Assembly (NCBI GenBank): GCA_012735135.1
Contig: JAAYHY010000031.1
Location: 1 to 32,631 of the forward strand
Length of the DNA stretch: 32,631 bases
Direction: 5' to 3'
DNA from: Bacillota bacterium
GTDB taxonomy: Bacteria > Bacillota > UBA4882 > UBA10575
Of the stretch, positions 6,366 to 29,075 are shown in pieces. The notes beneath the pieces are model-generated. The model was not told the origin of the DNA. It saw nothing but the letters and a program-made list of their open reading frames with translations, and did no database searches. Within the stretch, counting starts at the first letter, position 1. Every line of letters begins with the position of its first letter. Made by a program: the position numbers and the translations under genes.

Positions 6366-6601
6366 AGCGGACCTTCCATTCTTCCTCCGGTGCGCGGTGG
6401 AAAATGCGCCCTAAAGGGATCAATTCTGAATCTTAAAATGACCATCTGCTTCATTATACAGAAATTATTTCCAAGAAAAAAGGGAAAAAGAATGATTTCC
6501 GGTTAAAATTTGGTATATTTCCTGCGTCACCAGGGTCCTGTTCATTACAGGCAAATGGTAATTTTATGTAAACCCTTGATATCAATTTAGTTACATTTAT
6601 A

Positions 6602-6630
6602 TTGACAAAAGGAGGGCGAATGTATATAAT
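6602..6630 (+). promoter_or_regulatory. Consensus sigma-A promoter of the glucan locus plus arm
   Basis: TTGACA at 6602-6607, 17-base spacer, TATAAT at 6625-6630: both hexamers are perfect. Transcription should begin near 6637, inside the operator that follows. This is the strongest promoter seen upstream of the porin gene, and its position implies tight repression by the LacI-type protein encoded at 19991-20992. Confidence 0.9.
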
Positions 6631-6632
6631 AA

Positions 6633-6648
6633 ACTTAACCGGTTAAGT
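6633..6648. promoter_or_regulatory. LacI-family operator O1 (16-bp palindrome)
   Basis: ACTTAACCGGTTAAGT is a perfect palindrome with the central CG typical of LacI/GalR-family sites. It starts 2 bases after the -10 box and covers the expected start site. The 12-bp core recurs at 7698, 19964 and 21009, each beside genes of this locus, which identifies it as the operator of the local LacI protein (inference). Confidence 0.88.
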
Positions 6649-6699
6649 ATTAAAGATAACTCGCCGGATTTTTAAAATAGCCGTAACCCTAGAGGGGTG

Positions 6700-6783
6700 A
6701 TGGTCACCGCTGAGTTCATGGGCCGGTGGAAACCAAAGATTAAAGCTTACGGTAGAAAAAGTATTAAGAAAGGTGTGGTCTGA
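6700..6783 (+). CDS. Possible 27-residue leader peptide
   Basis: A short ORF opens at ATG 6700 behind AGAGGGG and stops at TGA 6781-6783, sharing one base with the porin ATG (TGATG). The product is basic (RWKPKIKAYGRKSIKK) and has no recognised family. The porin gene also has its own site (AAAGGTG, seven bases from its ATG), so coupling is possible but not required. A short inverted repeat GGTGA-TGG-TCACC at 6696-6708 covers the leader start. It may be chance. Confidence 0.3.
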   Translation: MVTAEFMGRWKPKIKAYGRKSIKKGVV

Positions 6784-7667
6784 TGAAAAGATGTTTAGCG
6801 GTGTTAGGCTCTGTATTTCTCCTTTTTGCAGTGGCTTCCTCCAGTATCGCGGCCACTGTCATTGGGGGTGAGGTAGACTTCGGCTATGATATACAAAGGT
6901 CGATTACTTATGGTTATGCCAAACTGATCGCCGAAAACCGGATCAATGATGGTTTGACTGCCCATATTTCCTTTGATTTTGATACCATTGAGAAACAGGG
7001 CATGTGTGATCAAGCTTGGGCCGAGTTATACAACAGGTATACTACAATCCGGGTTGGCTATTGGCATTTCGATGTCAAGGGCGATGTCCGCGTGATTAGT
7101 CCGGTTACGATTATTGGACAGACGGCGACGGCGAGAGCGGAAATTCAACACAATTGTCAAGCCAGAATTGATCTTCCAATAAGTGAAAGTATCAACCTGA
7201 TGGGGTTTTTAACCCAACAACCCGCAGAAGAAGAACTACTATATGCCGGTGGCATATCTTATGAAGGGGATATTTGGGGAGCAGAGGCGATTTACATCAA
7301 ATATGACTCTTCGGTTTGGGCCGATCCGGCGGTAGTTCTTAATGCGTACTTAATTCCCTTTGATTCGACCAAAGTTTATTTGCATTACGGATTAAGCCGG
7401 GACTGTTATGGCGCTCAACCAAATGCTCCTACCAAAGAGCGAAAAGCCGCAATTATTGGCGTGAACTACGATTCCTTTGACTTACCTGTTTACATCCGGG
7501 GTGAAATTGACTTATATAAAGGTCTTTATGATGACGGAAATACCCCGTGGGGGCTGGTGGTAGGGTATAAGTTCAGAAATGGGGCCAGACTGCAGTATGA
7601 CCGGTATGTCCATGCCTACGGGGAAGACCATAATACAAATATTGTTAAGTTAATCGTCACCTTCTAA
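6783..7667 (+). CDS. Porin-like outer-membrane beta-barrel protein
   Basis: A 294-residue secreted protein. Residues 1-23 are a classical signal peptide (MKRCLAVLGSVFLLFAVASSSIAA). The rest alternates short amphipathic strands (for example GGEVDFGYDI, TTIRVGYWHFDVKG, PVYIRGEIDLYK, WGLVVGYKFRNGARLQYDRY) with polar turns and has no lipobox or membrane helix. It ends IVKLIVTF, with a C-terminal Phe as in many outer-membrane barrels recognised by BamA. I infer a 12- to 16-strand diffusion channel for oligosaccharides, placed first in the glucan operon. Three cysteines are unusual for a porin. No specific family is recognised; a secreted beta-rich surface protein is the alternative. Confidence 0.65.
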   Translation: MKRCLAVLGSVFLLFAVASSSIAATVIGGEVDFGYDIQRSITYGYAKLIAENRINDGLTAHISFDFDTIEKQGMCDQAWAELYNRYTTIRVGYWHFDVKGDVRVISPVTIIGQTATARAEIQHNCQARIDLPISESINLMGFLTQQPAEEELLYAGGISYEGDIWGAEAIYIKYDSSVWADPAVVLNAYLIPFDSTKVYLHYGLSRDCYGAQPNAPTKERKAAIIGVNYDSFDLPVYIRGEIDLYKGLYDDGNTPWGLVVGYKFRNGARLQYDRYVHAYGEDHNTNIVKLIVTF

Positions 7668-7697
7668 AGGACACAGGGGCTTTTTTTGGATGGAAAA

Positions 7698-7709
7698 TTA
7701 ACCGGTTAA
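7698..7709. promoter_or_regulatory. LacI-family operator O2
   Basis: TTAACCGGTTAA, the exact core of O1, lies 30 bases after the porin stop and about 46 bases before the next start codon. A weak promoter is possible around it (TTGGAT 7686-7691, TATATT 7711-7716, 19-base spacer). It may give the downstream genes their own regulated start, act as a roadblock, or form a loop with O1 about 1060 bases away. Confidence 0.85.
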
Positions 7710-7755
7710 GTATATTGGTTTTACTTCTCAACTATATTATTATGGGGTGACCGAA

Positions 7756-8346
7756 ATGAAGCGGGCCTTGCTAATGGGAATCCTGTTTTTATGCCTGATG
7801 CTCCTCTGCTTCCTTGGCCAAGGGGTTGCGAAGGCACAGGTGTGGCCGGCCAATGAAATATACCTTTGGCGGATGGAAGATAAAAGAGAGTTGAGATCTT
7901 TTGATTCGGACCGTTCCGGAGCCCGGTTTGTTCTTGATGATGAATATGTTACTGAAGGTAATTATTCATGCAAAGTTATCCCCGGAGGTGGAGAAGAGAC
8001 AAAGTTAGCGGTGAAGATCACCGGTTTAATTGAGAAGTGGAATGGCAAGAACAGTTTATTCCTTGATCTATATTTGCCGGAAGATCACCCGTTGAATGGC
8101 TGTTTTCTCGGGTTGGCCCAGGCTTTGCCCGAATGGGAATGGATTGATGGGTGCATGGCGGCAACCTCGGTGATCCCGGGTGAATGGAACCGCGTCATCT
8201 TCAAACTCACTGATAAGATGAAGTTTCTTCATCCACGAAAGCAATATATAATCTACCTTTGTTTTTGGCATGATGATGGCGGGGAAAAAATCCCTTTACA
8301 TAAAGAAAACCCCTTCTATATTGATGGCATTGGGTTAATCGAATAA
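7756..8346 (+). CDS. Secreted single-module glycan-binding-like protein
   Basis: A 196-residue exported protein. I choose ATG 7756 because GGGGTGA lies five bases upstream; the GTG at 7747 is part of that site. A signal peptide runs to about residue 29 (FLGQGVAKA-Q). The mature protein is one beta-sandwich-like module with landmarks shared with three other copies in this locus: YLWRMED at the start, GNYSCKVIPGGGEETKL, a WNGKNSLFLDLYLPE strand, WEWIDG, PGEWNRVIFKLT, and a closing FYIDGIGLI. The pattern resembles galactose-binding-fold carbohydrate modules, so glucan capture is inferred from fold and context. No known family is claimed. Confidence 0.72.
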   Translation: MKRALLMGILFLCLMLLCFLGQGVAKAQVWPANEIYLWRMEDKRELRSFDSDRSGARFVLDDEYVTEGNYSCKVIPGGGEETKLAVKITGLIEKWNGKNSLFLDLYLPEDHPLNGCFLGLAQALPEWEWIDGCMAATSVIPGEWNRVIFKLTDKMKFLHPRKQYIIYLCFWHDDGGEKIPLHKENPFYIDGIGLIE

Positions 8347-8370
8347 ATGCTGGAGAGAGGTGGAAAGAGG

Positions 8371-9000
8371 GTGACTAGAAAGCGGATTTGGATATGGCTC
8401 TTCCTCCCGTTAGTTTTCTTGCTGACCTCCTGTGAGCGTTCTTCGCGCAATAACGGCTCCGCCCATGTGACTTTTTTATGGAATATGGATAATGAATTGG
8501 TGTTTACCCGGGTCAATTGTGGAGTCACTAAGGTGACGGAACCGGTTTATCAATGCGCCTATTCATGGAGACTTACTCCTTCAGGATCTTCAGACCCGAA
8601 TTATCCTGAAGTGAAACTGGAGACGACCTTTGATCCGATTAATAATCCCGGCCTTTTTGAGAAATGGATTTGGGCAAACCGGGTATTCATTGATGTCTAT
8701 GTTCCGGAGGGAAGTAATTTTAATAATTGTTTTGTCTATGTATGGGATGACAAAGCTTATTTTGAAACCGGAAATGGCTGGGTTGACGGCGTGTTTCAAC
8801 AAAAGGTGATGGGTCCTGGCTGGAACCGGGTGGTTCTTCCCCTCACTTTTAAGATTAAGGATTTGGATCCCTCACGGCCCAGAACTTATAAAATCGGTTT
8901 TGGCTTTCGCCACATGGCCGAAGGCCAAGAAAAGTATAGAGAAAACGGCTATCCTTTAAATCAAGTTCCAATTTATATCGGTGGGATTGGCGTGTTTTAG
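8371..9000 (+). CDS. Lipoprotein with one glycan-binding-like module
   Basis: A 209-residue lipoprotein. I prefer GTG 8371, which has GAGGTGG upstream; ATG 8347, directly after the previous stop, would add eight residues before the signal sequence. The lipobox is FLLTSC, giving an anchored mature protein. One module follows with the same landmarks as the neighbours: FLWNMDN, YSWRLTPSG, a WANRVFIDVYVPEGSNFNN strand, GWVDG, GPGWNRVVLPLT, DLDPSRPRTYKIGFGFRH and IYIGGIGVF. It has diverged most of the four copies. It is nearly fused to the preceding gene, so the two are probably co-translated as a pair of surface glycan-binding proteins. Confidence 0.72.
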   Translation: MTRKRIWIWLFLPLVFLLTSCERSSRNNGSAHVTFLWNMDNELVFTRVNCGVTKVTEPVYQCAYSWRLTPSGSSDPNYPEVKLETTFDPINNPGLFEKWIWANRVFIDVYVPEGSNFNNCFVYVWDDKAYFETGNGWVDGVFQQKVMGPGWNRVVLPLTFKIKDLDPSRPRTYKIGFGFRHMAEGQEKYRENGYPLNQVPIYIGGIGVF

Positions 9001-9010
9001 CCGCCCGTGT

Positions 9011-9102
9011 CGGTTACCTCCCGTGCGCATGAAGGGTTGAAGATGAACTGATTGACAACATTCCTCGGTGGATGGCCGGTTACCTTTTAGGCGCATAAAG
9101 GG
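9011..9102 (+). repeat. Imperfect 26-bp direct repeat
   Basis: Two 26-base units at 9011-9036 and 9077-9102 both begin CGGTTACC and contain GCGCAT and AAGGG; 20 of 26 positions agree. Their starts are 66 bases apart, about six helical turns. They occupy the gap between the module lipoprotein and the first glucanase gene. TTGACA at 9052-9057 lies between them but has no matching -10. Confidence 0.4.
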
Positions 9103-9160
9103 ACATATGCATGGGCGATGAGTAACCAGTGTGATACCTCAAACAGAGGGGGATTGGATT

Positions 9161-11215
9161 ATGCGGAAAAAGACGAGGTTCTTGTTGTTTGTATTTTTGC
9201 TCTTCTTTGGTTTGCTCTGTGTTATGGCGCAAGCGCAGGACAGGATTGAGGTGGAGACCGGCCGGCCTGAGTTTATCGAAAAAATGCTCGAGAAGACTTC
9301 AGAAGAGAGTAGAGAAGAAGTGGCTTCCCTTCTGAAGCTGGATGACGATGAACTTTTGGAGGCGATCTCCCGCCGGACTTTTCAGTATTTTTGGCAAGAG
9401 GCCAATCCACGGAACGGGTTGATTAAGGATCGTAGCACTGTAGACTCGCCCAGTAGCATTGCCGCGGTGGGTTTCGGGTTAAGCGCAATTCCCGTGGCGG
9501 TTGAGCGGGGCTGGATTTCTTATGACGAAGGTTATCAACGGGCCTTGACCACCCTAAAGACTTTTGCCAAGGGTAAAGTGGAAGGGCGGAAGGGGTTTTA
9601 TTATCATTTTGTCGACATGCATTATGGAAAAAGGGTTTGGAACTGCGAACTGTCCTCGATTGACACAGCAATCCTGATTGCCGGAGGGATCGTCTGCGGT
9701 GAATACTTCAAAGGAACCAGCGTCGAAAAGTATGCCAATCAACTCTATGAAAAGGCGGATTGGCAATGGATGACCAATGGTGAGGAGACATTAACCATGG
9801 GGTGGGACCCCCTCCATGGTTTTCTTCGGGCCCGTTGGAACGGTTTTAACGAGGGGATTCTCGCCACTTTACTGGCGATCGGTTGACCCACCCATCCGCT
9901 CTCTCCGGAAGCATGGCACAAGATCTACCGGCCGGTGAAAGGCGGAACGTATATCAATTTACAAGACGAAGTCCTCTTTGTTTATCAATATCCCTTGATC
10001 TGGTTTGACCTCCGGGAAAAGGAAGACCGGTATGCCAATTATTGGCAGAACGCGATCGCCGCCATTAATTATAACCGGCTTTTTACTAGGTTTAACCGTA
10101 GTTACCTGACTTACCGGGGTAATATCTGGGGGCTAAGCGCCGGGGACGGCCCCACCGGCTATAAGGCCTATGGCGCTTTTCACGATAAACATGACGGCAC
10201 GATTGTGCCGTATGCCTCCATTGCTTCGTTGCCTTTTACGCCGGCGGAATCGATGGCGGCAATCCGGGAGATGCTGGCGAAATTTGGTCCATTGGTCTGG
10301 GGGAAATACGGTTTTGTCAGTGGCTTTAATGTAGACCGTAAATGGTTCTCCAAGCAACATATCGGCATCGACCAGGGCGCCATTTTACTGATGATTGAAA
10401 ATTACCGGACCGGTATGATCTGGGAGTATTTCATGCGCCACCCCAGGGTGCAAAAGGCTCTGGAACTTGCGGGTTTCAAAGAAAGTAACTCCGAATACGC
10501 GGTCACTCCCGCCTATGCGGAAGAGTATGAGGCCCTCATGCTCCTCCCCTCCCAGAAAACAGCTGAAGCCTTCCGCAGGCAAAAGGCGGTTTTGATCGAT
10601 GGGGATCTCACGGAATGGCAGGGTGTGCCCAGCTATTTGGTGGATGAAGACATGAATGTCCCCGATGGAAATATTACAAAAGTTGATAAAAACAAGATGA
10701 ATCTCCGCAGTGAGTTTTATCTTCAATGGGACGACGAGTACCTCTATTTAGCCGCCGATGTGACGGATGATGTAATCGTCAACAACCTCTCTCCAGCGGA
10801 ACGGGGCGCCTTTTACCGTACCGATTCGGTGGAGTTTTATATCGATCCCGGCCGGAGCGGAGGCGGGGCCGGTCTTTTCAAATTAAGTGTCCTTCCCTTT
10901 GATACTTTAGGCAACGTCCATGCGGCGCGGCACGAGGACGCCCGTCCCGGGCCGATCGAGGTCATGGCGCCGGGGACACGGGTGGCTTCCCGGCGGACTG
11001 TTAAAGGCTATAGTGTGGAAGTGGCCATTCCCTTTACGGAATTGGGGATTAGTCCCCAGGAAGGGCTGGTTCTGGGGTTCTGCCATACGGTGCATAATTG
11101 TAACGACCGGTCGGCTCCGCGCGGCGCTTATGTCCGGGAGAACATGATCGCCTGGAACCATCTGCCTATGGTGTGGGAAAATCCGGATTTGTGGGGAGAC
11201 TTGATTCTCAAGTAG
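9161..11215 (+). pseudogene. Secreted GH144-like glucanase with CBM9, split by in-frame TGA
   Basis: Start ATG 9161 follows AGAGGGGGA. A signal peptide ends near AQAQ. A PF10091 (GH144-like, endo-beta-1,2-glucanase) domain runs from LLEAISRRTFQYFWQEANP to FMRHPRVQKALELAGF, with WGLSAGDGPTGYKAYG and FNVDRKWF...IGIDQGAILLMIENYRTG matching the family. A CBM9-like domain follows (KAVLIDGDLTEWQG, DEYLYLAADVTDD, RTDSVEFYIDP, GYSVEVAIPFTELG). TGA at 9884-9886 interrupts the frame inside G-[stop]-PTHP, where the paralogue at 12798 reads GSPTHP (TCA). Everything after it stays open in the same frame to 11215, so there is no other decay. Possible causes are a recent nonsense mutation, a base error, or readthrough; a GTG at 9935 could only restart a fragment. 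Confidence 0.85.
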
Positions 11216-11413
11216 TTACAGTAAAAACAATCATTCACATGAACGAAGAGGATCGAGCGACGGAGTAAAGGGCAAAAGGAAAAGCCTGTTCTTTGACGGG
11301 TGTTGCAATTCTAACCTTAAGGGGGTGAGCTGGTAAAGGAAACGGTAAGGGGATAAAGACAAGGGTATTCATGGGGATGGATCTCCAAAGTAAAAAAAAA
11401 CGAGGTGAATGTG

Positions 11414-12589
11414 GTGAAAAGAACGATTTATCTCGCTTTGGTTTTGTGCCTGGTGGTAGCGCTGATGGCTGGTTGTGGCAAGAAGAAAGAAAAAACTGGT
11501 CCAACCGGTCCGGTAATCCCACAGGTTGGAACGGTCCTCTGGAATTTTGAAACCGATGAGGAAGTAGCAAAGTTTGATAATGACAATACGGGAGCAGAGC
11601 TTGAACTTGATACCAAGACTGTTGCGGAAGGAAAAGCCGCTCTAAAAGTGACGCCCAATGGCGAGGCGGAGGAAACCAAGATCGCCGCCGTTCTAGATCA
11701 GGCTAAAGTTGGCGCTTGGAATGCCAGCAAAAACCTTGTGCTTAAACTCTATATGGACCAGGGTATGAATCCGGCCATCAACATTGTCTTTCTTGGAATC
11801 GCCGATGTAACTGGTGGTAATTGGAGCTGGGTGGATGGCACTTTCTTGAACATTGCCGGAGCGAAAACTGGTCAATGGAATACATGTGTCTTTGATCTGA
11901 CCGCAAAGCCTACGATGCTGGACTTGGATCCAAAACGCGACTACAAATTCTATTTTAGTTTCTATAATGAGGATGGAGAAAAAACACCGCTGGCCAGCAG
12001 TAGCAGTTTTTATGTGGACTATATTTATATTGATGGCCAAGGTTCCAGCGAAGATCCGGGCGAAGATCCCGGTGAAGATCCGGAACCGGCCCTCCTCTGG
12101 GGTTTCGAGTCGGAAAATGAAGCAACTGAGTTTGCGGAGGAGGGAGGAACCGGTGCGGTTCCTACCTATACCACGGAACAAGCCTTTGCGGGGACCGGCG
12201 CGCTGAAAGTAACTCCAAGCGGCACGGCAGAAGAAACAAAGATCAAAGTGCGGTTACCGGTAACCAAAAATGAAAACTGGAAGAACAGCTCAAACCTTGT
12301 CCTTAACCTCTATATGGCAGAAGGAATGGCTCCGGCCGTCAATAAGATTTTTGTGGGGATGGCGGATGTGACTAATGATGGCTGGGAATGGGTAGAGGGC
12401 ACGACCTCTTCCTTAACCGAGGTAAAGCTGGGAGAATGGAACGAATGTAAGCTTCTCTTGCCCCATAAAATGATAAATATAGATCCAACGAAACAATATG
12501 AGTTATACTTCAGCTTCTTCAATGAGGTAGACGGGGCAAAAACACCGCTTGCGGATGCCTTTTATATCGATGAAATCTCAGTGGAGTAA
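11414..12589 (+). CDS. Lipoprotein with two tandem glycan-binding-like modules
   Basis: A 391-residue lipoprotein. GTG 11414 is chosen because GAGGTG lies six bases upstream and it gives a clean signal peptide (MKRTIYLALVLCLVVALMAGC, cut before Cys21). A Lys-rich linker leads to module 1 (VLWNFETDEEVAKF ... FYVDYIYIDG) and, after an acidic EDPGEDPGEDPEP linker, module 2 (LLWGFESENEATEF ... FYIDEISVE). The modules share ALKVTPxGxAEETKI, NLVLxLYM, GxADVT, WxWV(D/E)GT, GxWNxC, and DPxxxYxxYFSFxNE. They match the single modules at 7756 and 8371. A glucan-holding role like SusE/SusF is inferred. The gene ends at a strong terminator. Confidence 0.78.
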   Translation: MKRTIYLALVLCLVVALMAGCGKKKEKTGPTGPVIPQVGTVLWNFETDEEVAKFDNDNTGAELELDTKTVAEGKAALKVTPNGEAEETKIAAVLDQAKVGAWNASKNLVLKLYMDQGMNPAINIVFLGIADVTGGNWSWVDGTFLNIAGAKTGQWNTCVFDLTAKPTMLDLDPKRDYKFYFSFYNEDGEKTPLASSSSFYVDYIYIDGQGSSEDPGEDPGEDPEPALLWGFESENEATEFAEEGGTGAVPTYTTEQAFAGTGALKVTPSGTAEETKIKVRLPVTKNENWKNSSNLVLNLYMAEGMAPAVNKIFVGMADVTNDGWEWVEGTTSSLTEVKLGEWNECKLLLPHKMINIDPTKQYELYFSFFNEVDGAKTPLADAFYIDEISVE

Positions 12590-12632
12590 GCAAGCCTCCT
12601 TTTAGCCAAAAGGATCGACAATTAACTACCGA

Positions 12633-12665
12633 GTGTGGCAGCCAGCTGCCACACTTCTCTCTTTT
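12633..12665 (+). terminator. Rho-independent terminator of the plus-arm operon
   Basis: A ten-base perfect stem GTGTGGCAGC / GCTGCCACAC with a tiny loop is followed by TTCTCTCTTTTT. It lies 44 bases after the two-module lipoprotein stop and splits the second glucanase gene from the upstream operon. Confidence 0.85.
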
Positions 12666-12694
12666 TATTCACTATGGTTTTCTGCGTAAAGCTT

Positions 12695-12723
12695 TTTGCG
12701 TTGTCTGCTATAACGGCTAATAT
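12695..12723 (+). promoter_or_regulatory. Probable promoter of the second glucanase
   Basis: TTTGCG at 12695-12700, 17-base spacer, TAATAT at 12718-12723. It lies between the terminator and the glucanase start and carries no copy of the TTAACCGGTTAA operator, so this gene may be expressed without LacI control as a scouting enzyme (inference). Confidence 0.45.
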
Positions 12724-12797
12724 AACAAGATAAATTGGTAGATTTCCGGATTGAGAAGGCAACACAGAAAGCCAGGATTATATTGGGGGAGGAACAA

Positions 12798-14072
12798 ATG
12801 AAAAGGTATTTATCGAAAATACTCAATGTCTTTCTTATTATCTTACTCCTTGTCGTACTGGTTGGTTGCGGAAAGAAAACGCCTCCCCAGGCGCCGGATC
12901 TTTTGACGGATGTTTCGAGGCGGACTTTTAATTATTTTTGGGAATTTGCCCACCCGGAAACCGGTTTGGTGCTGGACAAATACATCGACCAATCGGTAGC
13001 CAGTATTGCGGCGACCGGGTTTGGCCTGGCGGCGTTACCAATCGGGGTGGAAAAGGGTTGGATCACCCGGGTCCAAGGAAAGGAACGGGCCCTTAAGACA
13101 TTAGACTCCTTCGAATCCGGACTGGTGGAGGGGAAAAACGGTTTTTTTATGCATTGGGTAAATTGGAGAACCGGAAAAGGGGTGTGGGACCGGGAGGTTT
13201 CATCCATTGATACCGCTTTGTTCATCGCGGGCGCAATTGTTGCCGGCGAGTATTTTGGCGGTGATATTAAAGAACGGGCTGAGAAATTATACAAAGCAAT
13301 CGATTGGCAATGGATGACCGACGATGGCGTCACTTTAAGAATGGGCTGGAAAGAAAAAGAGGGTTTCACCAACGACCGGTGGGGAGACCGGTTTGACGAG
13401 GGGTTATTGGCCACCCTTCTGGCCATGGGTTCACCGACACACCCAATCTCTCCGGCGGCTTGGGACGCGATTGACCGTTCAGTGGTGCAGACCAACCCAC
13501 ACACCGGTGAGACCCATATCGCGTTGGAAGCTGAGACTCTCTTTGTCTACCAGTTCCCCTTAATCTTTTTTGATCTCCGGAATACGGCCGACCGTCATGG
13601 AATTGATTATTTTGAAAATGCCGTAAAGGCAACGAAGTATAACCGGGATTATACGATGAAGACCCACGCTGACAAGTATGGCGTCTACGGGGAGGTCTGG
13701 GGTTTAAGCGCCGAGGATAAACCCTATGGCGGTTATCATGCCTATGGCGCCCGGGATGGTAACAACGACGGCACTATTGCGCCGTATGCTTCGATCTCGG
13801 CTTTGCCTTTTCTCCCGGAAGAGGCGATGGCGGCAGTTAAGGCGATGGTCAACAACTTCCCGCAAGTCTACGGAAAGTATGGTTTTCATGCCGGATTTAA
13901 TCTCATTGTTAAGGGGGGGCCATGGTATTCCGGTAATTACATCGGGATTGACCAAGGCGCCATTTTGCTCTCGATTGCCAACTACCAATCGGAAATGGTG
14001 TGGAAATACTTTATGCAAAACCCTTATGTCCTAGAAGCGGTAAGGCTGGCCGGCTTTGACCGGTATCAATAG
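12798..14072 (+). CDS. GH144-like endo-beta-1,2-glucanase lipoprotein
   Basis: A 424-residue surface-anchored enzyme. Start ATG 12798 has GGGGGAGG just upstream; the frame is open further 5' but without a better site. The lipobox is VLVGC, followed by a Pro-rich linker. A single PF10091 domain fills the rest: DVSRRTFNYFWEFAHPETGL, GLAALPIGVEKGW, DREVSSIDTALFIAGA, WGDRFDEGLLATLLAMGSPTHPISPAAW, YGEVWGLSAEDKPYGGYHAYGARDGNNDGTIAPYAS, YGKYGFHAGFN and YIGIDQGAILLSIANYQ. The known GH144 activity is endo-cleavage of linear beta-1,2-glucan to sophoro-oligosaccharides; the related domain of cyclic glucan synthase is a transferase, so activity is inferred. It is intact, unlike the CBM9-bearing paralogue, and lacks that CBM. 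Confidence 0.85.
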   Translation: MKRYLSKILNVFLIILLLVVLVGCGKKTPPQAPDLLTDVSRRTFNYFWEFAHPETGLVLDKYIDQSVASIAATGFGLAALPIGVEKGWITRVQGKERALKTLDSFESGLVEGKNGFFMHWVNWRTGKGVWDREVSSIDTALFIAGAIVAGEYFGGDIKERAEKLYKAIDWQWMTDDGVTLRMGWKEKEGFTNDRWGDRFDEGLLATLLAMGSPTHPISPAAWDAIDRSVVQTNPHTGETHIALEAETLFVYQFPLIFFDLRNTADRHGIDYFENAVKATKYNRDYTMKTHADKYGVYGEVWGLSAEDKPYGGYHAYGARDGNNDGTIAPYASISALPFLPEEAMAAVKAMVNNFPQVYGKYGFHAGFNLIVKGGPWYSGNYIGIDQGAILLSIANYQSEMVWKYFMQNPYVLEAVRLAGFDRYQ

Positions 14073-14166
14073 GAAGGCTATGCCATCGTATACAGTGTAA
14101 AAGATAAATGCGTTAGCGGTGTGAAGAGTAAGAGGATAATCAATAAACATAAAAACAACTTAAGAA

Positions 14167-14200
14167 AAAACAGCGGTTTCCCCTTTGGGACCGCTGTTTT
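14167..14200. terminator. Bidirectional terminator between convergent arms
   Basis: The stem AAAACAGCGGT / ACCGCTGTTTT, with a further CCC/GGG pairing in the loop, has an A-run on one side and a T-run on the other. It can end the glucanase transcript rightwards and the permease operon leftwards. Confidence 0.85.
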
Positions 14201-14247
14201 GCGTTTCACTCTCTTTTGGTTGGTTGTTGTTTTGTTTTCTATGGCTT

Positions 14248-14393
14248 CTAACTCTCTTGGGTGGCTGGATTTTTGCCAAGTAGGACCACCAACTGCTCCT
14301 GGCCTCCCGTGAGGGTTAATGTATAATCGTGGTTCTGGCCCGGTGCTTGACCGGCGACGGATGGCCATCAAAAGGAAAAGGAATTTTGCCCAA
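14248..14393 (-). pseudogene. Degraded C-terminal coding remnant
   Basis: Directly after the permease stop the minus strand still reads like protein: first LGKIPFPFDGHPSP in the permease frame, then, after a frame change, VAGQAPGQNHDYTLTLTGGQ followed by EQLVVLLGKNPATQES and a TAG at 14248-14250. The second piece has a beta-strand pattern and is followed by the shared terminator, as a real gene end would be. I read it as the tail of a lost sixth gene of the operon. The family is not recognised and chance cannot be excluded. Confidence 0.35.
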
Positions 14394-15269
14394 TCAGCTT
14401 TTTATCCCCGTTGTTGAAATCCCGTGGACGATGAATTTTTGTCCGGCTAAGAAGATCAAGAAGAGTGGGATTAAAACCAGAACCGCTCCGGCCATCACGA
14501 CGCCAAAAGTTGTGCTGGCCTGGTTTTGCCCGAAAAGGGTGTAAAGAGCGACTTGTAAAGTATACATACTGCTGTCGGTGGCGATAATTGCCGGCCAGAG
14601 AAAGTCGCGCCACATCCCGGTGAAGTTGAGGATACCAAGGGTGGCTAAAGCAGGTTTAAGTAAAGGGATGATGATCCTAAAGAAGATGAGCCCTTCGTTG
14701 GCTCCGTCAATCCGGGCGACCTCACATAGTTCATCGGGGATGCTCAGCATATGTTGGCGGAGGAAAAAGATATTAAAGACATTGGCCAGCGGCGGGATGA
14801 TGAGCGCGCGATAGGTATTGAGCCAACCTAAAAAGTTGATGGAAAGATAGTTCGGGATTAACGTTACCTGTGAAGGAATCATCATCGTGGCGAGAAAAAG
14901 CATAAATAAAAGGTTCCGACCGGGAAAATGTAATTTCGAAAAAGCGTAGGCCGCCATCGCTGGGATGAGAAGCGCGCCAATGGTGTAAGAAACGGTGACG
15001 ATTAAGGTGTTTTGAAAGGCTTTGGCAAAATCGATCTCTTGTTTGAAGAGGTTAATGTAGTTCTCGAAGGAGATGTGTTTTGGGATTAAGCGCGGCGGTA
15101 GCTCGAAGATGGCCTCTTGGCTCTTGAAAGAAGTTGATATCATCCAAAACAAGGGAAGTATTGTTGAGAGGAGGCCAATGATTAAAAGCAGATAGACACC
15201 GATCTTAAGCAGAAGGGCTTTCGGCGGCACCCTTTTTCTACGGTTATAGTTAAGAGGCTCCTTTTCCAT
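14394..15269 (-). CDS. Sugar ABC transporter permease, MalG type
   Basis: A 291-residue inner-membrane permease of the carbohydrate-uptake-1 class. Six hydrophobic segments are visible, beginning with LLLKIGVYLLLIIGLLSTIL. The cytoplasmic EAA loop is clear: EVARIDGANEGLIFFRIIIP, which contacts the ATPase. I start at ATG 15269 because GGGAGGG lies six bases upstream; the TTG at 15284 is inside that site. It follows the MalF-type gene by 18 bases and is the last intact gene of the minus arm. With its partner it should import oligosaccharides handed over by the binding protein. No ATPase gene is in the operon, so a shared MsmX-type ATPase elsewhere is likely. Confidence 0.92.
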   Translation of the reverse strand: MEKEPLNYNRRKRVPPKALLLKIGVYLLLIIGLLSTILPLFWMISTSFKSQEAIFELPPRLIPKHISFENYINLFKQEIDFAKAFQNTLIVTVSYTIGALLIPAMAAYAFSKLHFPGRNLLFMLFLATMMIPSQVTLIPNYLSINFLGWLNTYRALIIPPLANVFNIFFLRQHMLSIPDELCEVARIDGANEGLIFFRIIIPLLKPALATLGILNFTGMWRDFLWPAIIATDSSMYTLQVALYTLFGQNQASTTFGVVMAGAVLVLIPLFLIFLAGQKFIVHGISTTGIKS

Positions 15270-15287
15270 AATCAACCCTCCCAAAAG

Positions 15288-16166
15288 TTAGTATTTTTGC
15301 TCACCGAGTTTAATCTGAAACAGGGTGACAATGAAGATAAAGGCGAAGAGGATATATGAAGAGGCTGCCGCGTAACCCATTTTGAAGTAACGGAAACCAT
15401 TCTCGTAGATGAACAACACAATTGTTTTCGTCGCATCCATTGGTCCTCCCCCATTGGTGAGGGTTAATGGTTCAGTAAACAATTGAAAACCACCGATCAT
15501 CGAAGTTATGCTAATGAATAAGGTGGTTGGCGCCAGGAGAGGAATGGTGACATACCAAATTTTCTGCCATCTGTTCGCGCCGTCAATCTCCGCGGCTTCG
15601 TACAGTTGTTGGGGGATATTTTGGAGTCCGGCCAGGTACAGCATGGCATAATAGCCCAGACTCCGCCAGACCACCAGCCCGACAATGGCTAGCATGGCGA
15701 ATCTTACGTCCGTGAGCCAGCCGGGGCCTTTGATCCCAAACCAGCTTAAAATATGGTTTAGAATCCCGTAGTCTTTGCTGACCACCCAATACCAGACCGT
15801 CGAGATGGCGATTCCGTCACTGATATAGGGCATAAAAAAGCCCATCCGGAAAAAATTACGCAGTTTGATCAGGGGTAAATTTAAAAGTAAAGCCAGCGCC
15901 AAGGAGAGGACCAGCACCAGGGGTACCATCAAAACGACAAAATATAAGGTATTCACAATACATTTTAAAAAAAGTTCATCATGGAGCAGATGCCGGTAGT
16001 TTGCCAAACCGATTAATTTGGCGTTTCCCCAGTTGACTAAGGAACGGACATTAAAATCGGTTAAGCTAATATATAAGGAAAAGAAAACCGGGAAAACGAC
16101 AAAGCAGAAAATAATGATCAGCGAAGGTAACAGAAACAAGAGCGGAGTTAGGTATTTTTTTCTCAC
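15288..16166 (-). CDS. Sugar ABC transporter permease, MalF type
   Basis: A 292-residue inner-membrane permease, partner of the MalG-type protein. It opens with a basic start and a hydrophobic helix (LTPLLFLLPSLIIIFCFVVFPVFFSLYISL), has about six helices, and carries the EAA loop YEAAEIDGANRWQKIWYVTIP. GTG 16166 is preceded by AAAGGGGGAA. Unlike E. coli MalF it lacks the extra N-terminal helices and large periplasmic loop, as is normal for Gram-positive-type oligosaccharide importers. A strong hairpin lies in the 105-base gap between it and the upstream binding-protein gene. Confidence 0.92.
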   Translation of the reverse strand: MRKKYLTPLLFLLPSLIIIFCFVVFPVFFSLYISLTDFNVRSLVNWGNAKLIGLANYRHLLHDELFLKCIVNTLYFVVLMVPLVLVLSLALALLLNLPLIKLRNFFRMGFFMPYISDGIAISTVWYWVVSKDYGILNHILSWFGIKGPGWLTDVRFAMLAIVGLVVWRSLGYYAMLYLAGLQNIPQQLYEAAEIDGANRWQKIWYVTIPLLAPTTLFISITSMIGGFQLFTEPLTLTNGGGPMDATKTIVLFIYENGFRYFKMGYAAASSYILFAFIFIVTLFQIKLGEQKY

Positions 16167-16203
16167 CTGTGTTCCCCCTTTAAAAAAACTGGACAGGAGA
16201 CGG

Positions 16204-16237
16204 ATTGCTGGGCGAAGCAGGTTCTTCGCCCAGCAAT
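16204..16237. promoter_or_regulatory. Intra-operon 14-bp perfect hairpin
   Basis: ATTGCTGGGCGAAG pairs perfectly with CTTCGCCCAGCAAT across a six-base loop. It sits between the binding-protein gene and the first permease gene. On the transcribed (minus) strand no T-run follows directly (a run of seven T comes about 15 bases later), so partial termination or 3'-end protection is more likely than full stop. Such hairpins raise binding-protein mRNA over permease mRNA, as at malE-malF. Confidence 0.7.
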
Positions 16238-16271
16238 ATAGGCTAGGATCTTGGTGAATTTGGAGTGGCCT

Positions 16272-17492
16272 TTAGTAATCAGCCATGATCTTTTCCAAGT
16301 CTTTCGCCAGTAATTGACAGGCTTCCAGTGGTGTTCTAACCCCATAACAAGCCTCTTGGATTCTGGTATTAAGGCGGCCTTCGATCTCCGGCCATTGCGG
16401 CACGACCGGCGGCGCCACCCCTTCCTTGAGTTGTTCAAAAACGATCTTCATGAGCGGGTCTTGCTCGGCGGCCATGGCCATGGCTTCTATATTGGCGGGA
16501 ATGGAGCCGGCTGCTTCTCGCCACTGGTTTTGGATCTCCGGCCGACTCAGAAATTCAATTAGTTTCCAGGCGGCCTCTTTCTGACGGGCTCTTTTGAAGA
16601 TGACTAGACCACAGCCGCCCATGAAAGAGGCGCGGCTTTTCTTCATCGGCATCAAGGCAATCGACCATTTACCATCCAAATGCGGGGTTTCGGTACGTAA
16701 AAGGTTCCCTTCCCAAAAGCCGCCGATGAAAATGGGCAACCTTCCATTGGCTAATTCTTGCCTTATGTTCGAGCCTCCAGTATCAAGTAGGGCATATTCA
16801 TTTTTAAAGATATCGACCAGCCAGGCTACGGCCTCTACAAAGGCTTCTTCGGTTACGGCAGGACGGCCTTCTTCATCAAAGATCCGGCCGCCGTTGGCCC
16901 AGATAAAATTCATGGTGACCTGCCAGTTACCGGCAGCCATGTTTACCGCATGTTGATTGGGTCCTCTTGCCCGCAGCTTCCGGCAACAGTCAATAAACTC
17001 ATCCCATGTATCCGGAAACTCTTTATAACCAACTTCCTCCAGAATATCGGTGCGGTAAAAGAAAAATCTCGTATCGGCATACCAAGGGATACCATAGGGT
17101 TTACCGTCTACAATGTAAAGGTCGCGGCAAGCCGGAAAGAAGTCATCCAATTTTAAGCTATTTGATTTTGCCAAATAGGGAGAGAGGTCTTCCAGCGCTC
17201 CTGCTGTTGTAAATTGGGCCATATAAGTTGAACCCATCTGGGTAAGGTCGGGGACGGTGCCGCCAGCCACTGCGGTTAAAAGCCGGTCGTTCGCGGCTGA
17301 CCACGGAATTACTTGGAGCTTAACTTTGATCCCTGGATTTTCCGCTTCAAATTGGGGCAACAGTTTACCAATATTCTGGCCTTCGACCCCCATCGCCCAT
17401 AGGGAGATAGTTTGTACGTTGGCTGCTTTTAAAGGGAAGACTGCTGTCATGATGAGGATCAGAACAAAAAACAACCGTACCGATCTTCTCAT
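16272..17492 (-). CDS. Periplasmic sugar-binding protein of ABC importer
   Basis: A 406-residue family-1 extracellular solute-binding protein. Residues 1-24 are a signal peptide (RLFFVLILIMTAVFPLKAA) with an Ala-X-Ala-like cleavage site and no lipobox cysteine, so the mature protein should be soluble. Bacillota with one membrane normally lipidate these proteins, so this points to a periplasm. The body fits the fold: ISLWAMGVEG, LLPQFEAENPGIKVKLQVIPW, DLTQMGSTYMAQF, GKPYGIPWYADTRFFFYRTDIL and GGCGLVIFKRARQKEAAWKLIEFL. It starts 78 bases after the GH94 gene. By context the ligand is a beta-1,2-gluco-oligosaccharide, similar in logic to the Listeria sophoro-oligosaccharide importer; unproven. 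Confidence 0.9.
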   Translation of the reverse strand: MRRSVRLFFVLILIMTAVFPLKAANVQTISLWAMGVEGQNIGKLLPQFEAENPGIKVKLQVIPWSAANDRLLTAVAGGTVPDLTQMGSTYMAQFTTAGALEDLSPYLAKSNSLKLDDFFPACRDLYIVDGKPYGIPWYADTRFFFYRTDILEEVGYKEFPDTWDEFIDCCRKLRARGPNQHAVNMAAGNWQVTMNFIWANGGRIFDEEGRPAVTEEAFVEAVAWLVDIFKNEYALLDTGGSNIRQELANGRLPIFIGGFWEGNLLRTETPHLDGKWSIALMPMKKSRASFMGGCGLVIFKRARQKEAAWKLIEFLSRPEIQNQWREAAGSIPANIEAMAMAAEQDPLMKIVFEQLKEGVAPPVVPQWPEIEGRLNTRIQEACYGVRTPLEACQLLAKDLEKIMADY

Positions 17493-17570
17493 TATTTACC
17501 CCTCCATTATGTTTTTATAAGGCGCATTCGGATTTGAATCCGGGTTAAGCCAAAGAAATACCAAGGATAT

Positions 17571-19940
17571 TTAGAAAATCACGTCCACGTAATGAAGCCG
17601 GCCGTCAAAATTGGGGAAAATCTTATTACTGTTAAGTTTCACCCCGTCCAGAATCAACCCCTTTTCTTCGCCGGTGGCGGCCCGCCGGAAAGCAAACTGG
17701 TAGACGGCGCCCCGGTAGGGCCGGGTGACCCTGAACTCTGTCCATTCGTCAGGAACCTGCGGGTTGATTAAGAGGCCGTCCCAATCGGGGATAATTCCGC
17801 AGATCCCTTCCATGGCGACCAGAAACGACCAAGTGGAAGAGCCCGTGTACCAGGTGAACCCCCCACGTCCGAAATGGGGGGAATCGGGTCCGTCGACATT
17901 ACCGGGGGTCACATAGGGTTCCGCTTTATATAAATCAGGATTAAGGCCCCGGTAAGGCGGTAAAATGTTTTTATAGGCCGCATAGGCCTGCTTTTTCTTC
18001 CCTAATTTGCAGGCGGCGAGTATCCCCCAGGTGGCGGCATGGGTGTAAACACCGCCGTTTTCCCGTAATCCCGGTGCGTACCTGCTTAAATAACCGATGT
18101 TTGTCTGAGATGTCTTGTAGGCGGGGTAAAAAAGGATCGGCCCATACTCACGGAAGAGATACGTCTCCATGGCGTGGAAGAGCTTCTCCGCCCGGTCAGG
18201 AGGGGCTATATCATTAAGGATGGCCCAGGATTGGGGGTTAAGAAAGATTTTCCCTTCCGGGGAATTTTTACTCCCGAGGATGACGCCGTTATCACAAACG
18301 GCGCGAATATACCAATCGCCATCCCAGCCATATGTATTGATTAGTGTCTTCAGACGTTCCGCGGCACGTAGATACTGCTCTTTGCGTTCAGGGTCATTAC
18401 TCTTCTCCGCCACAACCGTAAATTCTTTTAGGATTCCGCATAAGAATTGGGCCAACCAGATGCTTTCCCCTTTTCCTTCCGCGCCCACCGCATTCATGCC
18501 GTCGTTCCAATCCCCGTCGCCAATGAGGGGAAGCCCCCGCGGACTTAGATGCGCCAGGCTGTAGTCGATGGCTTGGCAACAGTGTTCATAGATACTGGCC
18601 GGCGTCCCGTCTTTGTAAGGGACTTGTTCTTGCAGAAAGCCATAATTACCAGTCTCTTTTAAATACCTGATCACCACAAAGGGCAACCAAAGCAGATTAT
18701 CGGAGATCTTGTTCTCCATGGCGATTTCTGAAAGCGGATGCCACCAGTGGTTCACCCTTCCCTCTGGAAATTGATGGGCGGCATGCAATTTGATCTGTTG
18801 TTCGGTTCTGGCCGGGTCGATGTATAAAAAGATCTGGCTGGCCTGAAGCTGGTCCCGGAAGCCATAGGCGCCACCCGCTTGGTAATAGCCGGTTCTTCCC
18901 CAGATATGGCCGGAGAGGGTCTGGTACTTTAACCAAAGATTATTCATCAAGTTAAATCCCGGATCGGGAGTTTGAACCGTGGTGGTTGTTAAGAGCTGTC
19001 GCCAATATTCTTTCGTGGCGGCGAACCCTTCCTCCACCGCCGAGGCGGATTGATATTTCTTGATCAGCTCGTCGGCCTGTTTCTCGTCTTCTTGCCCTAC
19101 GGCGCCCAGCAGATAGATAAGCTCCACTTTTTGACCGGGCGGGATCACGACCTTGTTATGAAGGCTGCTGATGGGATCAGTCCATTTGCCGGACGTGCCG
19201 CTAACAGCACCCTTAATTACGGCGGCCGGTTTTTCGCTGCTTCCGTATAAACCCAAGAACTTTTCTTTATCGCCTTCAAAGCCGGTGACCGGGAGGTTGA
19301 CACTGTGAAAAGCAAGGTATTCCCAATCCCTGTTCCAATGCTGCCCTTTGGCATTCGGGATCTCCCATAAGCGTTTTCGCGCGAAGATGGTATTGCGGTC
19401 CTCATCAAATTGGGTCTCTACAAAGAGACGATGAAACTCACGGGCGTGGTCGGGAAGGCCTAAACACCATTCAAGGTAGGTGAAGAGGGATAGATGTTTC
19501 TCCTGCCTACTCTGATTTTGCAGTTGGACTCTCCAGATTTCGAGGGGCTCTCCGGGAGGGACAAAGATCGTAAGGGTGCTTTCGATCTGTTGATAAACTG
19601 AGTTAAATTGAGAATAACCAATCCCATGTTTTACTTGGTAAAAATCGGGTTGGTAGCAGACCGGTTTCCACGTGAGCGACCAGAATTGACCGGTGTCTTC
19701 GTCGCGAAGATATAAGTATTTACCGGAATTATCTTTGATCAGGTCCTGTTCCCATCGGGTAATCCGGTTGTGGGAAGCGTGGGTCTTCCAACTGTAGCCG
19801 CCACCTGTTTGCGAAAGGATGACCCCATAATCACCCGGGCAGATGATATTCACCCATGGGCGGGGGGTATCCGGTCTGGTAATAATATACTCGTCACCAG
19901 CATCATTAAAATATCCATATTTACTTTGAAACTGGGCCAA
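17571..19940 (-). CDS. GH94 beta-glucan oligosaccharide phosphorylase
   Basis: A cytoplasmic protein of about 789 residues, the usual length of cellobiose/chitobiose-type GH94 enzymes, which split beta-glucosides with phosphate to give glucose 1-phosphate. The N-terminal FQSKYGYFNDAGDEYIITRPDTPRPW is family-typical, and the catalytic Asp lies in GLPLIGDGDWNDGMNAVG. GAYGFRDQLQAS, HWWHPLS and ISDNLLWLPFVV resemble, from memory, the GH94 domain of cyclic beta-1,2-glucan synthase and sophoro-oligosaccharide phosphorylases more than cellobiose phosphorylase, but it lacks the extra length of the ~1100-residue 1,2-beta-oligoglucan phosphorylase. I choose TTG 19940 because GAGGTG lies six bases upstream; GTG 19949 is inside that site. 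The TTAACCGGTTAA operator sits upstream. Linkage specificity is inferred from neighbouring GH144-like genes. Confidence 0.9.
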   Translation of the reverse strand: MAQFQSKYGYFNDAGDEYIITRPDTPRPWVNIICPGDYGVILSQTGGGYSWKTHASHNRITRWEQDLIKDNSGKYLYLRDEDTGQFWSLTWKPVCYQPDFYQVKHGIGYSQFNSVYQQIESTLTIFVPPGEPLEIWRVQLQNQSRQEKHLSLFTYLEWCLGLPDHAREFHRLFVETQFDEDRNTIFARKRLWEIPNAKGQHWNRDWEYLAFHSVNLPVTGFEGDKEKFLGLYGSSEKPAAVIKGAVSGTSGKWTDPISSLHNKVVIPPGQKVELIYLLGAVGQEDEKQADELIKKYQSASAVEEGFAATKEYWRQLLTTTTVQTPDPGFNLMNNLWLKYQTLSGHIWGRTGYYQAGGAYGFRDQLQASQIFLYIDPARTEQQIKLHAAHQFPEGRVNHWWHPLSEIAMENKISDNLLWLPFVVIRYLKETGNYGFLQEQVPYKDGTPASIYEHCCQAIDYSLAHLSPRGLPLIGDGDWNDGMNAVGAEGKGESIWLAQFLCGILKEFTVVAEKSNDPERKEQYLRAAERLKTLINTYGWDGDWYIRAVCDNGVILGSKNSPEGKIFLNPQSWAILNDIAPPDRAEKLFHAMETYLFREYGPILFYPAYKTSQTNIGYLSRYAPGLRENGGVYTHAATWGILAACKLGKKKQAYAAYKNILPPYRGLNPDLYKAEPYVTPGNVDGPDSPHFGRGGFTWYTGSSTWSFLVAMEGICGIIPDWDGLLINPQVPDEWTEFRVTRPYRGAVYQFAFRRAATGEEKGLILDGVKLNSNKIFPNFDGRLHYVDVIF

Positions 19941-19963
19941 TCCTCGCACCTCTTTCTATAAAA

Positions 19964-19975
19964 TTAACCGGTTAA
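19964..19975. promoter_or_regulatory. LacI-family operator O3
   Basis: TTAACCGGTTAA lies 16 bases after the lacI stop and 24 bases before the GH94 start. No strong promoter is seen with it (TATAGA lies just downstream on the minus strand, without a good -35). It may control a weak local promoter or stop read-through from lacI. Confidence 0.85.
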
Positions 19976-19990
19976 GTTCGCGGTAAAAAA

Positions 19991-20992
19991 TTAAATGGCC
20001 TGACAAGAGGAACGCTCAACCAAACTGGTTTTTAAAACAACTTTCCGTTGGGAAGGTTTTTCATTGTAGATAAGCTGAAAAATCATTTCGGTGGCACGTT
20101 TTCCCATTTCTTCGATGGGTTGCTTGATCGTGGTTAGCGCCGGTTCAACGAGTGAAGAAGCCTCGATATCATCGCAGCCAATGATCGAAAGTTCTTGCGG
20201 CACCTTAAGACCTGCTGCGCGTGCTGCTGAGAGAACACCGATGGCCATTTGGTCATTGGCCGCGAAAACCGCAGTAGGATTTGGTTGGATCTGTTGTAAG
20301 GTGAAAAATGCTTGATAACCCCCTTCACGTTTAAAGTTTCCCTGGCAAAACAGGTCTTCCGTATATGAGAGCCCATAATCATTAAGGGCTTGACGGTAAC
20401 CGCGAAAGCGGAGTAAACTATCGTTTGAGCTTTGCGGCCCGCCAACAAAGGCAATCCGTTTATGACCAAGTTTGATCAGATACTCGGTAGCCTTGTAACC
20501 GGCTTCAAAGTTATCCACATTTACCGAATAGATGGATTTGTCATCGAAGGTGGAGTCGATCAGGACAAAGGGAATCTTCCGTTTTTTGAGGTTAATAATA
20601 TAATCCAAATCTAAAAAATAAGTCATCAGAATGATACCATCCACCCGGCCATTGGTAAACAGGTCCACCATTTCCTGTTCTTTCTCGGGAATGGCATGGG
20701 TCGTACAGAGGTTGAGGGTAAAATTGTACAAATTAGCGGTTTTCTCCACTCCCCGGACGACTTGGACGTAAAAATGGTCACTAATATCCGGGATTATTAA
20801 CCCTAACATTTCGGTGGATTTTCCGGCTAAGCCACGGGCAACCGCATTGGGATGGTAATTCATCTCCTTCATAATTTTAAGGATTTTCTGCCGCGTTTCT
20901 TCGCTGACTCCCGGTTTATTATTGATAACATAAGAGACAGTTGCCTTTGTCACATTGGCGGCTTTGGCAATATCACTAATGGTTACTGGCAA
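19991..20992 (-). CDS. LacI-family transcriptional regulator of the glucan locus
   Basis: A 333-residue repressor. The N-terminal helix-turn-helix is textbook: VTISDIAKAANVTKATVSYVINN, then the hinge region YHPNAVARGLAGKST. The ligand domain resembles periplasmic sugar-binding proteins (LGLIIPDISDHFYVQVVRGVEKTA, GHKRIAFVGGPQSSNDSLLRFRGYRQAL, PTAVFAANDQMAIGVL, LSIIGCDDIEASSLVEPALTTIKQP). TTG start at 20992 has GAGGGTGA four bases upstream. Its own promoter carries the same operator as the structural genes, so it should repress itself. The inducer is probably a gluco-oligosaccharide from the pathway (inference). Confidence 0.93.
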   Translation of the reverse strand: MPVTISDIAKAANVTKATVSYVINNKPGVSEETRQKILKIMKEMNYHPNAVARGLAGKSTEMLGLIIPDISDHFYVQVVRGVEKTANLYNFTLNLCTTHAIPEKEQEMVDLFTNGRVDGIILMTYFLDLDYIINLKKRKIPFVLIDSTFDDKSIYSVNVDNFEAGYKATEYLIKLGHKRIAFVGGPQSSNDSLLRFRGYRQALNDYGLSYTEDLFCQGNFKREGGYQAFFTLQQIQPNPTAVFAANDQMAIGVLSAARAAGLKVPQELSIIGCDDIEASSLVEPALTTIKQPIEEMGKRATEMIFQLIYNEKPSQRKVVLKTSLVERSSCQAI

Positions 20993-21008
20993 ATAATCAC
21001 CCTCTAAC

Positions 21009-21020
21009 TTAACCGGTTAA
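21009..21020. promoter_or_regulatory. LacI-family operator O4 (autoregulation)
   Basis: TTAACCGGTTAA sits four bases downstream of the -10 box of the lacI promoter on the minus strand, over the predicted start site. This is the same geometry as O1 at the porin promoter. Confidence 0.88.
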
Positions 21021-21024
21021 TTTA

Positions 21025-21053
21025 ATTATATACACTAGTAAAGACTTTGTCAA
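21025..21053 (-). promoter_or_regulatory. Consensus promoter of lacI
   Basis: On the minus strand, TTGACA at 21053-21048, 17-base spacer, TATAAT at 21030-21025. Both hexamers are perfect, matching the porin promoter exactly in hexamers and spacing. Transcripts should start near 21018, inside operator O4. Confidence 0.9.
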
Positions 21054-29061: not shown

Positions 29062-29075
29062 GCGCTCACCACTTT

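What the first reader, a model, noticed from the sequence alone, without database searches (positions are those of the whole stretch)
7756..12589. Four-copy family of unassigned glycan-binding-like modules
Proteins at 7756, 8371 and 11414 carry one, one and two copies of a ~165-residue module. Shared landmarks are a leading (L/Y)LW.(F/M)(E/D/N), an ETK or EVK strand, a W-x-W-(V/I)-(D/E)-G turn, G-x-W-N-x-(V/C), and a final FYID/IYIG strand. All are exported, two by lipobox, and the tandem one has an EDPGEDPGEDPEP linker. I recognise no named family. They lie between glucanase genes, so a SusE/F-like role is likely (inference).
Basis: partly seen in the sequence, partly recalled or inferred. 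Interest (0 to 1): 0.7.

Follow-up and report, generated by a model that had tools for sequence, protein, structure and literature searches.

The report
Unnamed sugar-binding modules for β-1,2-glucan
Four repeated protein modules, unnamed in the family databases searched here, sit among genes for eating β-1,2-glucan and look like an unregistered carbohydrate-binding family, which in other bacteria is fused directly to the enzyme that cuts this sugar polymer.

Summary
Three exported proteins (7756-8346, 8371-9000, 11414-12589) carry four homologous ~165-residue modules. The modules hit no Pfam or NCBIfam family and no PDB sequence. AlphaFold gives a confident β-sandwich (pLDDT 96.8) whose best structural matches are carbohydrate-binding modules (CBM22, CBM44, CBM27, CBM11, CBM28).

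The family occurs in Bacillota, Thermotogota, Chloroflexota and Bacteroidota. Of 19 named loci, 12 have one to three copies fused N-terminally to a GH144 β-1,2-glucanase and 4 have a GH144 on the same contig. In a Bacteroidota locus a single-module lipoprotein directly follows SusC and SusD, the SusE/F position.

The window locus has the known β-1,2-glucan tool set: two GH144, a GH94, a Lin1841-like solute-binding protein, permeases and a LacI regulator. The palindrome TTAACCGGTTAA occurs four times in the genome, all here, and puts modules and enzymes in one likely regulon.

Best reading: a CBM family, unnamed in the libraries held, that captures β-1,2-glucan at the cell surface. Binding is untested. 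'SusE/F-like' holds as a role, not as family membership. No dbCAN/CAZy library was available, so CAZy novelty is not fully tested.

The parts
7756..8346 (+). P1: exported single-module protein (signal peptide, no lipobox)
   Evidence: ORF and signal sequence; dN/dS 0.10-0.16
7861..8343 (+). Module M1 (all-beta sandwich; W-x-W-I-D-G at residues 92-97 of the module)
   Evidence: AlphaFold pLDDT 96.8
8371..9000 (+). P2: single-module lipoprotein (lipobox LTSC)
   Evidence: dN/dS 0.17-0.21
8467..8997 (+). Module M2, divergent: lacks first Trp of W-x-W and the FYID Asp
11414..12589 (+). P3: two-module lipoprotein (lipobox MAGC) with EDPGEDPGEDPEP linker
   Evidence: dN/dS 0.25 against G006
11525..12037 (+). 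Module M3
12089..12586 (+). Module M4
12631..12656 (+). Terminator-like hairpin (11 pairs, T-rich tail) after P3
   Evidence: pattern scan only
6602..6630 (+). Perfect sigma-70 consensus promoter (TTGACA-17-TATAAT), 12 of 12
6635..6646 (+). Palindrome TTAACCGGTTAA, probable LacI operator just downstream of the -10
   Evidence: one of only 4 exact copies in the genome
7698..7709 (+). Probable LacI operator before P1
   Evidence: conserved in L022 and L024
19964..19975 (-). Probable LacI operator before the GH94 gene
   Evidence: conserved in L023, and before GH94 in L066 and L052
21009..21020 (-). Probable LacI operator before lacI, directly after a 12-of-12 promoter (21053-21025, minus strand)
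6783..7667 (+). Putative small outer-membrane barrel (signal peptide, C-terminal Phe); unassigned
   Evidence: no Pfam hit; conserved in G006 and G014; fold not obtained
9161..11215 (+). GH144 number 1 plus CBM9-like domain, interrupted by in-frame TGA at 9884-9886
   Evidence: PF10091 3e-51, PF06452 5e-20; intact orthologues 94% and 80% identical
12735..14072 (+). GH144 number 2 (lipoprotein)
   Evidence: PF10091 3e-58; endo-β-1,2-glucanase 5gzh E 4.6e-43
14394..16166 (-). Two ABC sugar permeases
   Evidence: PF00528
16272..17492 (-). Solute-binding protein, closest PDB match Lin1841 (5ysb)
   Evidence: E 4.8e-82
17571..19949 (-). GH94 phosphorylase, closest to the GH94 domain of cyclic β-1,2-glucan synthase
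   Evidence: 8rf9 E 4.9e-165; PF17167
19991..20992 (-). LacI-family regulator
   Evidence: PF00356, PF13377

Best explanation
The modules are a carbohydrate-binding module family of the jelly-roll superfamily, unnamed in the libraries searched, dedicated to β-1,2-glucan. In this diderm Bacillota cell the three exported proteins, two of them lipid-anchored, hold β-1,2-glucan (or its cyclic form) at the cell surface or in the periplasm and feed it to the GH144 endo-β-1,2-glucanases of the same regulon. The oligosaccharides are then taken up by the Lin1841-like ABC system and phosphorolysed by the GH94 enzyme. Binding probably uses the conserved aromatic W-x-W hairpin and the other invariant Trp and Tyr residues. 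Shown here: homology, predicted fold, fusion to GH144, shared operator, export signals. Inferred: ligand, binding face, location of the lipoproteins, and benefit to hydrolysis.
For: Predicted β-sandwich with pLDDT 96.8; best Foldseek and VIA matches are CBM44 (2c26), CBM22, CBM27, CBM11 and CBM28, VIA Z up to 13.4. Of 19 named loci, 12 carry the module in one polypeptide with GH144 and 4 have GH144 on the same contig; the other 3 are broken contigs or an odd join. In 398 phylum genomes, 8 of 9 module genomes have a stand-alone GH144 against 14 overall, Fisher p 1.8e-12, not corrected for relatedness. GH144, GH94, the solute-binding protein and, in G006, GH35 each match a β-1,2-glucan protein as best PDB hit or among the strongest, the set described for the IaSGT cluster (PMC8861115). 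One operator, 4 exact copies in the genome, all in this locus, covers modules and enzymes, and two of the copies lie next to perfect promoters. Bacteroidota relative: LacI, GH144, SusC, SusD, module lipoprotein, GH3. Omp85 in the genome implies an outer membrane.
Against: No binding data exist. Sequence identity to solved CBMs is only about 8-18% and the jelly-roll also serves non-glycan roles (a complex I assembly factor and meprin also appear). M2 and the first module of the G006 three-module protein have lost part or all of W-x-W, so not every copy need bind. Co-occurrence counts are not independent of phylogeny.
Confidence: 0.72

Rival explanations
1. The modules are jelly-roll glycan binders, but for something other than the β-1,2-glucan backbone: for example a branch, a chain end or the cell's own envelope, so that they anchor the enzymes to the cell instead of capturing substrate.
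For: Predicted fold matches binders of xylan, mannan, β-1,3 and β-1,4 glucans, so the fold does not fix the ligand. P2, P3 and GH144 number 2 are already lipid-anchored (sequence).
Against: GH144 association across four phyla with different envelopes points to the substrate shared by these loci, not to the cell wall.
Confidence: 0.15
2. The modules are protein-interaction or structural spacer domains that assemble the GH144 enzymes and an outer-membrane channel into a complex, with no sugar contact.
For: Split and fused arrangements (P1, P2 and GH144-CBM9 here; module-module-GH144-CBM9 in L052) suggest a physical complex. One locus joins two modules to a barrel-like protein (L067).
Against: The L067 join looks like a deletion: the barrel part is homologous to a separate gene in L075 and lacks its own start. 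Conserved aromatic W-x-W and the CBM fold argue for sugar contact.
Confidence: 0.1
3. C-type-lectin-like domains: FFLGMAD...WxWVDG resembles the lectin WIGL...WxWxDG motif.
For: Nearly all weak PDB sequence hits are C-type lectins, best E 0.03.
Against: Not significant, mostly limited to about 30 residues, and the predicted fold is a β-sandwich with strong CBM matches.
Confidence: 0.01

Closest known systems
CBM22 / CBM44 / CBM27 / CBM11 / CBM4 (jelly-roll CBMs)
   Same: Predicted fold, length, N-terminal placement beside a glycoside hydrolase, repeated copies
   Different: No sequence-level membership: no CBM family hit in 35 members at E 0.1; the enzyme partner is GH144, not xylanase, mannanase or cellulase
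SusE/SusF outer-membrane lipoproteins of Bacteroidota
   Same: Accessory exported lipoproteins with one or more glycan-binding-like modules; in L076/L077 encoded straight after SusC and SusD
   Different: No sequence relation; in the window there is no SusC or SusD and uptake is by an ABC transporter
N-terminal region of the exo-type GH144 BDI_3064 (PDB 5z06)
   Same: Jelly-roll domain at the N-terminus of a GH144, VIA Z 10.7, rmsd 3.3, 147 residues aligned
   Different: Profile comparison finds no homology (probability 0.7%; only two sequences on that side). Both kinds stand side by side in L078 and L079
IaSGT gene cluster of Ignavibacterium album (PMC8861115)
   Same: GH144 pair, GH94 of the cyclic-glucan-synthase type, Lin1841-like binding protein, and GH35 as in G006
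   Different: The paper's main text mentions no CBM or SusE for that cluster; the outer-membrane step is there assigned to a TonB transporter
CBM92
   Same: A CBM that can bind sophorose (PMC11039641)
   Different: β-trefoil fold and preference for β-1,6-glucan; unrelated

Membership tests
Carbohydrate-binding module (CAZy sense) | Discrete non-catalytic domain in the same polypeptide as a carbohydrate-active enzyme | tested here: met
   One to three copies N-terminal to GH144 in 12 of 19 named loci. In the window itself they are stand-alone proteins
Carbohydrate-binding module (CAZy sense) | Demonstrated carbohydrate binding | not testable with these tools
   Needs binding assays
Carbohydrate-binding module (CAZy sense) | Fold of a known CBM superfamily | tested here: met
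   AlphaFold pLDDT 96.8; Foldseek E 5e-7 to 2c26, VIA Z 13.4 (rmsd 3.0-3.3, 142-147 aligned) to CBM22 and CBM44; predicted, not solved
Existing CBM families held in Pfam | Significant match to the family profile | tested here: not met
   No CBM family at E 0.1 in any of 35 members; one member of an earlier set touched PF21253 Mann_GBD_bact at E 0.006
CAZy families absent from Pfam | Match to a CAZy/dbCAN family profile | not testable with these tools
   No dbCAN library on hand
SusE/SusF | Sequence family match | tested here: not met
   No Pfam or NCBIfam hit
SusE/SusF | Lipoprotein gene directly after susC and susD | tested here: inconclusive
   Met in L076/L077; not met in the window, which has no SusC/SusD
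C-type lectin domain | Significant sequence match | tested here: not met
   Best E 0.03 over about 26 positions
BDI_3064 N-terminal domain family | Profile-level homology | tested here: inconclusive
   hhalign probability 0.7% with a two-sequence profile; fold similar, Z 10.7

The most novel reading that the evidence does not exclude
This is the first CBM family dedicated to β-1,2-glucan. It is used in four phyla both as an appendage of GH144 and as free surface lipoproteins, including the SusE/F slot of a Bacteroidota β-1,2-glucan locus and a SusE/F-like role in a diderm Bacillota without SusC/SusD.
Probability: 0.55. Interest if true: 0.6.

Novelty: new member of a known kind. Interest (0 to 1): 0.5.

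Why it matters
Enzymes for β-1,2-glucan have been found in several new families since 2014, but in the papers held I found no binding module described for this polymer. A module family tied to GH144 in four phyla would supply one, explain how cells without SusC/SusD may hold the polymer at the surface, and give a probe for linear or cyclic β-1,2-glucan, a glycan that matters in symbiosis and infection.

Tried and rejected
Pfam, NCBIfam and PHROG scans of the modules gave only weak, unrelated names (CD47 V-set, OvoA, Ig_J). The CD47 V-set hit (E 0.06-0.3 for modules, 1e-5 for the G006 three-module protein with no stretch passing on its own) was set aside as unsupported. C-type lectin resemblance was rejected as above. 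No relatives in viral contigs (pattern based) or plasmids. That scan needs the FFLGMAD-type stretch, so divergent M1- or M2-like relatives are undercounted. Folding the putative barrel at 6783 alone failed (pLDDT 35), so its porin nature stays a guess. The L067 module-barrel fusion was first read as a Rosetta-stone link, then discounted because the join removes the end of module 2 and the start of the barrel. No paper found on a GH144-linked CBM.

Full report
What is there. Three exported proteins carry four homologous modules: P1 (7756-8346) has M1, P2 (8371-9000) has M2, and P3 (11414-12589) has M3 and M4 joined by an EDPGEDPGEDPEP linker. Pairwise scores lie 11-62 SD above shuffles. P2 and P3 have lipoboxes (LTSC, MAGC) and P1 a cleavable signal. 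Orthologues in two related genomes give dN/dS of 0.10-0.25 for the three genes, so they are real genes under purifying selection. The own genome holds no further copy.

Family and distribution. No module hits a Pfam, NCBIfam or PHROG family or a PDB sequence at a meaningful level. Within the order only 3 of 17 genomes have it. In a 398-genome phylum sample 9 genomes have strong matches and one (G089) a weak one. A named scan gave 19 loci in Bacillota (including Limnochordales), Thermotogota, Anaerolineae (Chloroflexota) and Bacteroidales/Balneolaceae.

Architecture tells the partner. In 12 of the 19 loci one to three modules precede a GH144 catalytic domain in one polypeptide, often followed by a CBM9-like domain; 4 more have a GH144 on the same contig; the last 3 are L067, L068 and L075, broken contigs or an odd join. 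In the phylum sample 8 of 9 module genomes have a stand-alone GH144, against 14 of 398 overall (Fisher p 1.8e-12, uncorrected for relatedness). The exception, G246, has only the short L067 contig. The window's first GH144 catalytic domain is, outside its own family of genomes, most like the fused ones (66% identical to L052). The operon P1-P2-GH144-CBM9 therefore looks like a split version of the fused module-module-GH144-CBM9 protein; the direction of that change was not tested.

Fold. AlphaFold on M1 with 35 rows gives pLDDT 96.8, pTM 0.90, mostly beta. Foldseek ranks CBM44 (2c26, E 5e-7), CBM22, CBM28, CBM11, CBM4 and CBM30 near the top. VIA gives Z 13.4 for CBM22 and CBM44, 12.2 for CBM27 and 12.1 for a laminarin-binding CBM (8qx6). 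Identity is about 8-18%, so this is fold-level kinship. Conserved positions across 35 sequences include P41, G43, G107, W109 and Y129 (invariant) and W60, K48, W94 and G97 (near-invariant). The W-x-W hairpin (92-94) is the likeliest sugar contact, and E6 with the FYID Asp may form the structural calcium site usual in this superfamily; both are inference from general knowledge of these folds. M2 has lost the first Trp and the Asp and sits on a branch of 2.66 changes per column, so it may have changed function.

Substrate. The neighbours define the pathway. GH144 number 2 matches endo-β-1,2-glucanase 5gzh (E 4.6e-43). GH94 is closest to the phosphorylase domain of cyclic β-1,2-glucan synthase (E 4.9e-165). 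The solute-binding protein is closest to Lin1841 (E 4.8e-82), a β-1,2-oligoglucan binder (PMC12369401). The GH35 of the sister locus matches the β-1,2-glucosyltransferase IaSGT (E 4.3e-173). The same set was described for Ignavibacterium album (PMC8861115).

Regulation. TTAACCGGTTAA occurs exactly four times in the 2.56 Mb genome, all in this locus: before the barrel-like gene, before P1, before GH94 and before lacI. Copies stand at the matching places in G006 and G014, and before GH94 in L066 and L052; L069, L070 and L072 have related AACCGGTT sites. Two sites lie a few bases after the only two 12-of-12 sigma-70 consensus promoters found in the scan of 6400-21200. This is the layout of LacI repression, and it puts modules and enzymes in one likely regulon; whether P3 and GH144 number 2 are read from the same transcript was not shown.

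Mechanism and SusE/F. The genome has Omp85 proteins, so an outer membrane is likely. The proposed course is: surface or periplasmic modules hold the polymer, GH144 cuts it, the ABC system imports oligosaccharides, GH94 phosphorolyses them. In L076/L077 (Bacteroidota) LacI, GH144, SusC, SusD, a single-module lipoprotein and GH3 form a locus, the module protein being in the SusE/F slot.

Limits. Nothing here shows binding. The fold is predicted. CAZy/dbCAN could not be searched, so an existing CBM number cannot be excluded. The literature library is partial.

Noticed in passing
window 9884-9886: In-frame TGA interrupts GH144 number 1 (9161-11215); the rest of the frame is intact and under purifying selection, and intact orthologues exist in G006 and G014. 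Recent nonsense mutation or assembly error; other explanations untested.
   Followed up: partly
window 14072-14394 and 17492-17571, compared with L023: The window lacks two genes that the sister locus has: a GH35 β-1,2-glucosyltransferase-like enzyme (not found elsewhere in the genome) and a three-module protein between the solute-binding protein and GH94.
   Followed up: partly
window 6602-6646 and 21009-21053: Two 12-of-12 sigma-70 promoters, each followed within a few bases by the same palindrome, which is found only four times in the genome.
   Followed up: yes
G004, G005, G008, G016: Relatives in the same genus, family and order without the modules carry ~2800-residue frames with the Glycoamylase domain, probably cyclic β-1,2-glucan synthases, while the module genomes degrade the polymer: possible producers and consumers in one lineage.
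   Followed up: no
L067:2791-5574: Two modules joined in frame to a barrel-like region whose homologue is a separate gene in L075:3408-5177; looks like a deletion join or misassembly.
   Followed up: partly
L076 and L077: Near-identical loci in two bins named Bacteroidales and Balneolaceae; one name or bin may be wrong.
   Followed up: no
L078:6479-8596 and L079:3523-5658: Both Anaerolineae loci pair a module-GH144 with a BDI_3064-like exo-GH144 that has its own N-terminal jelly-roll domain.
   Followed up: partly
window 28333-29567: Two neighbouring genes with DUF421/YetF domains.
   Followed up: no
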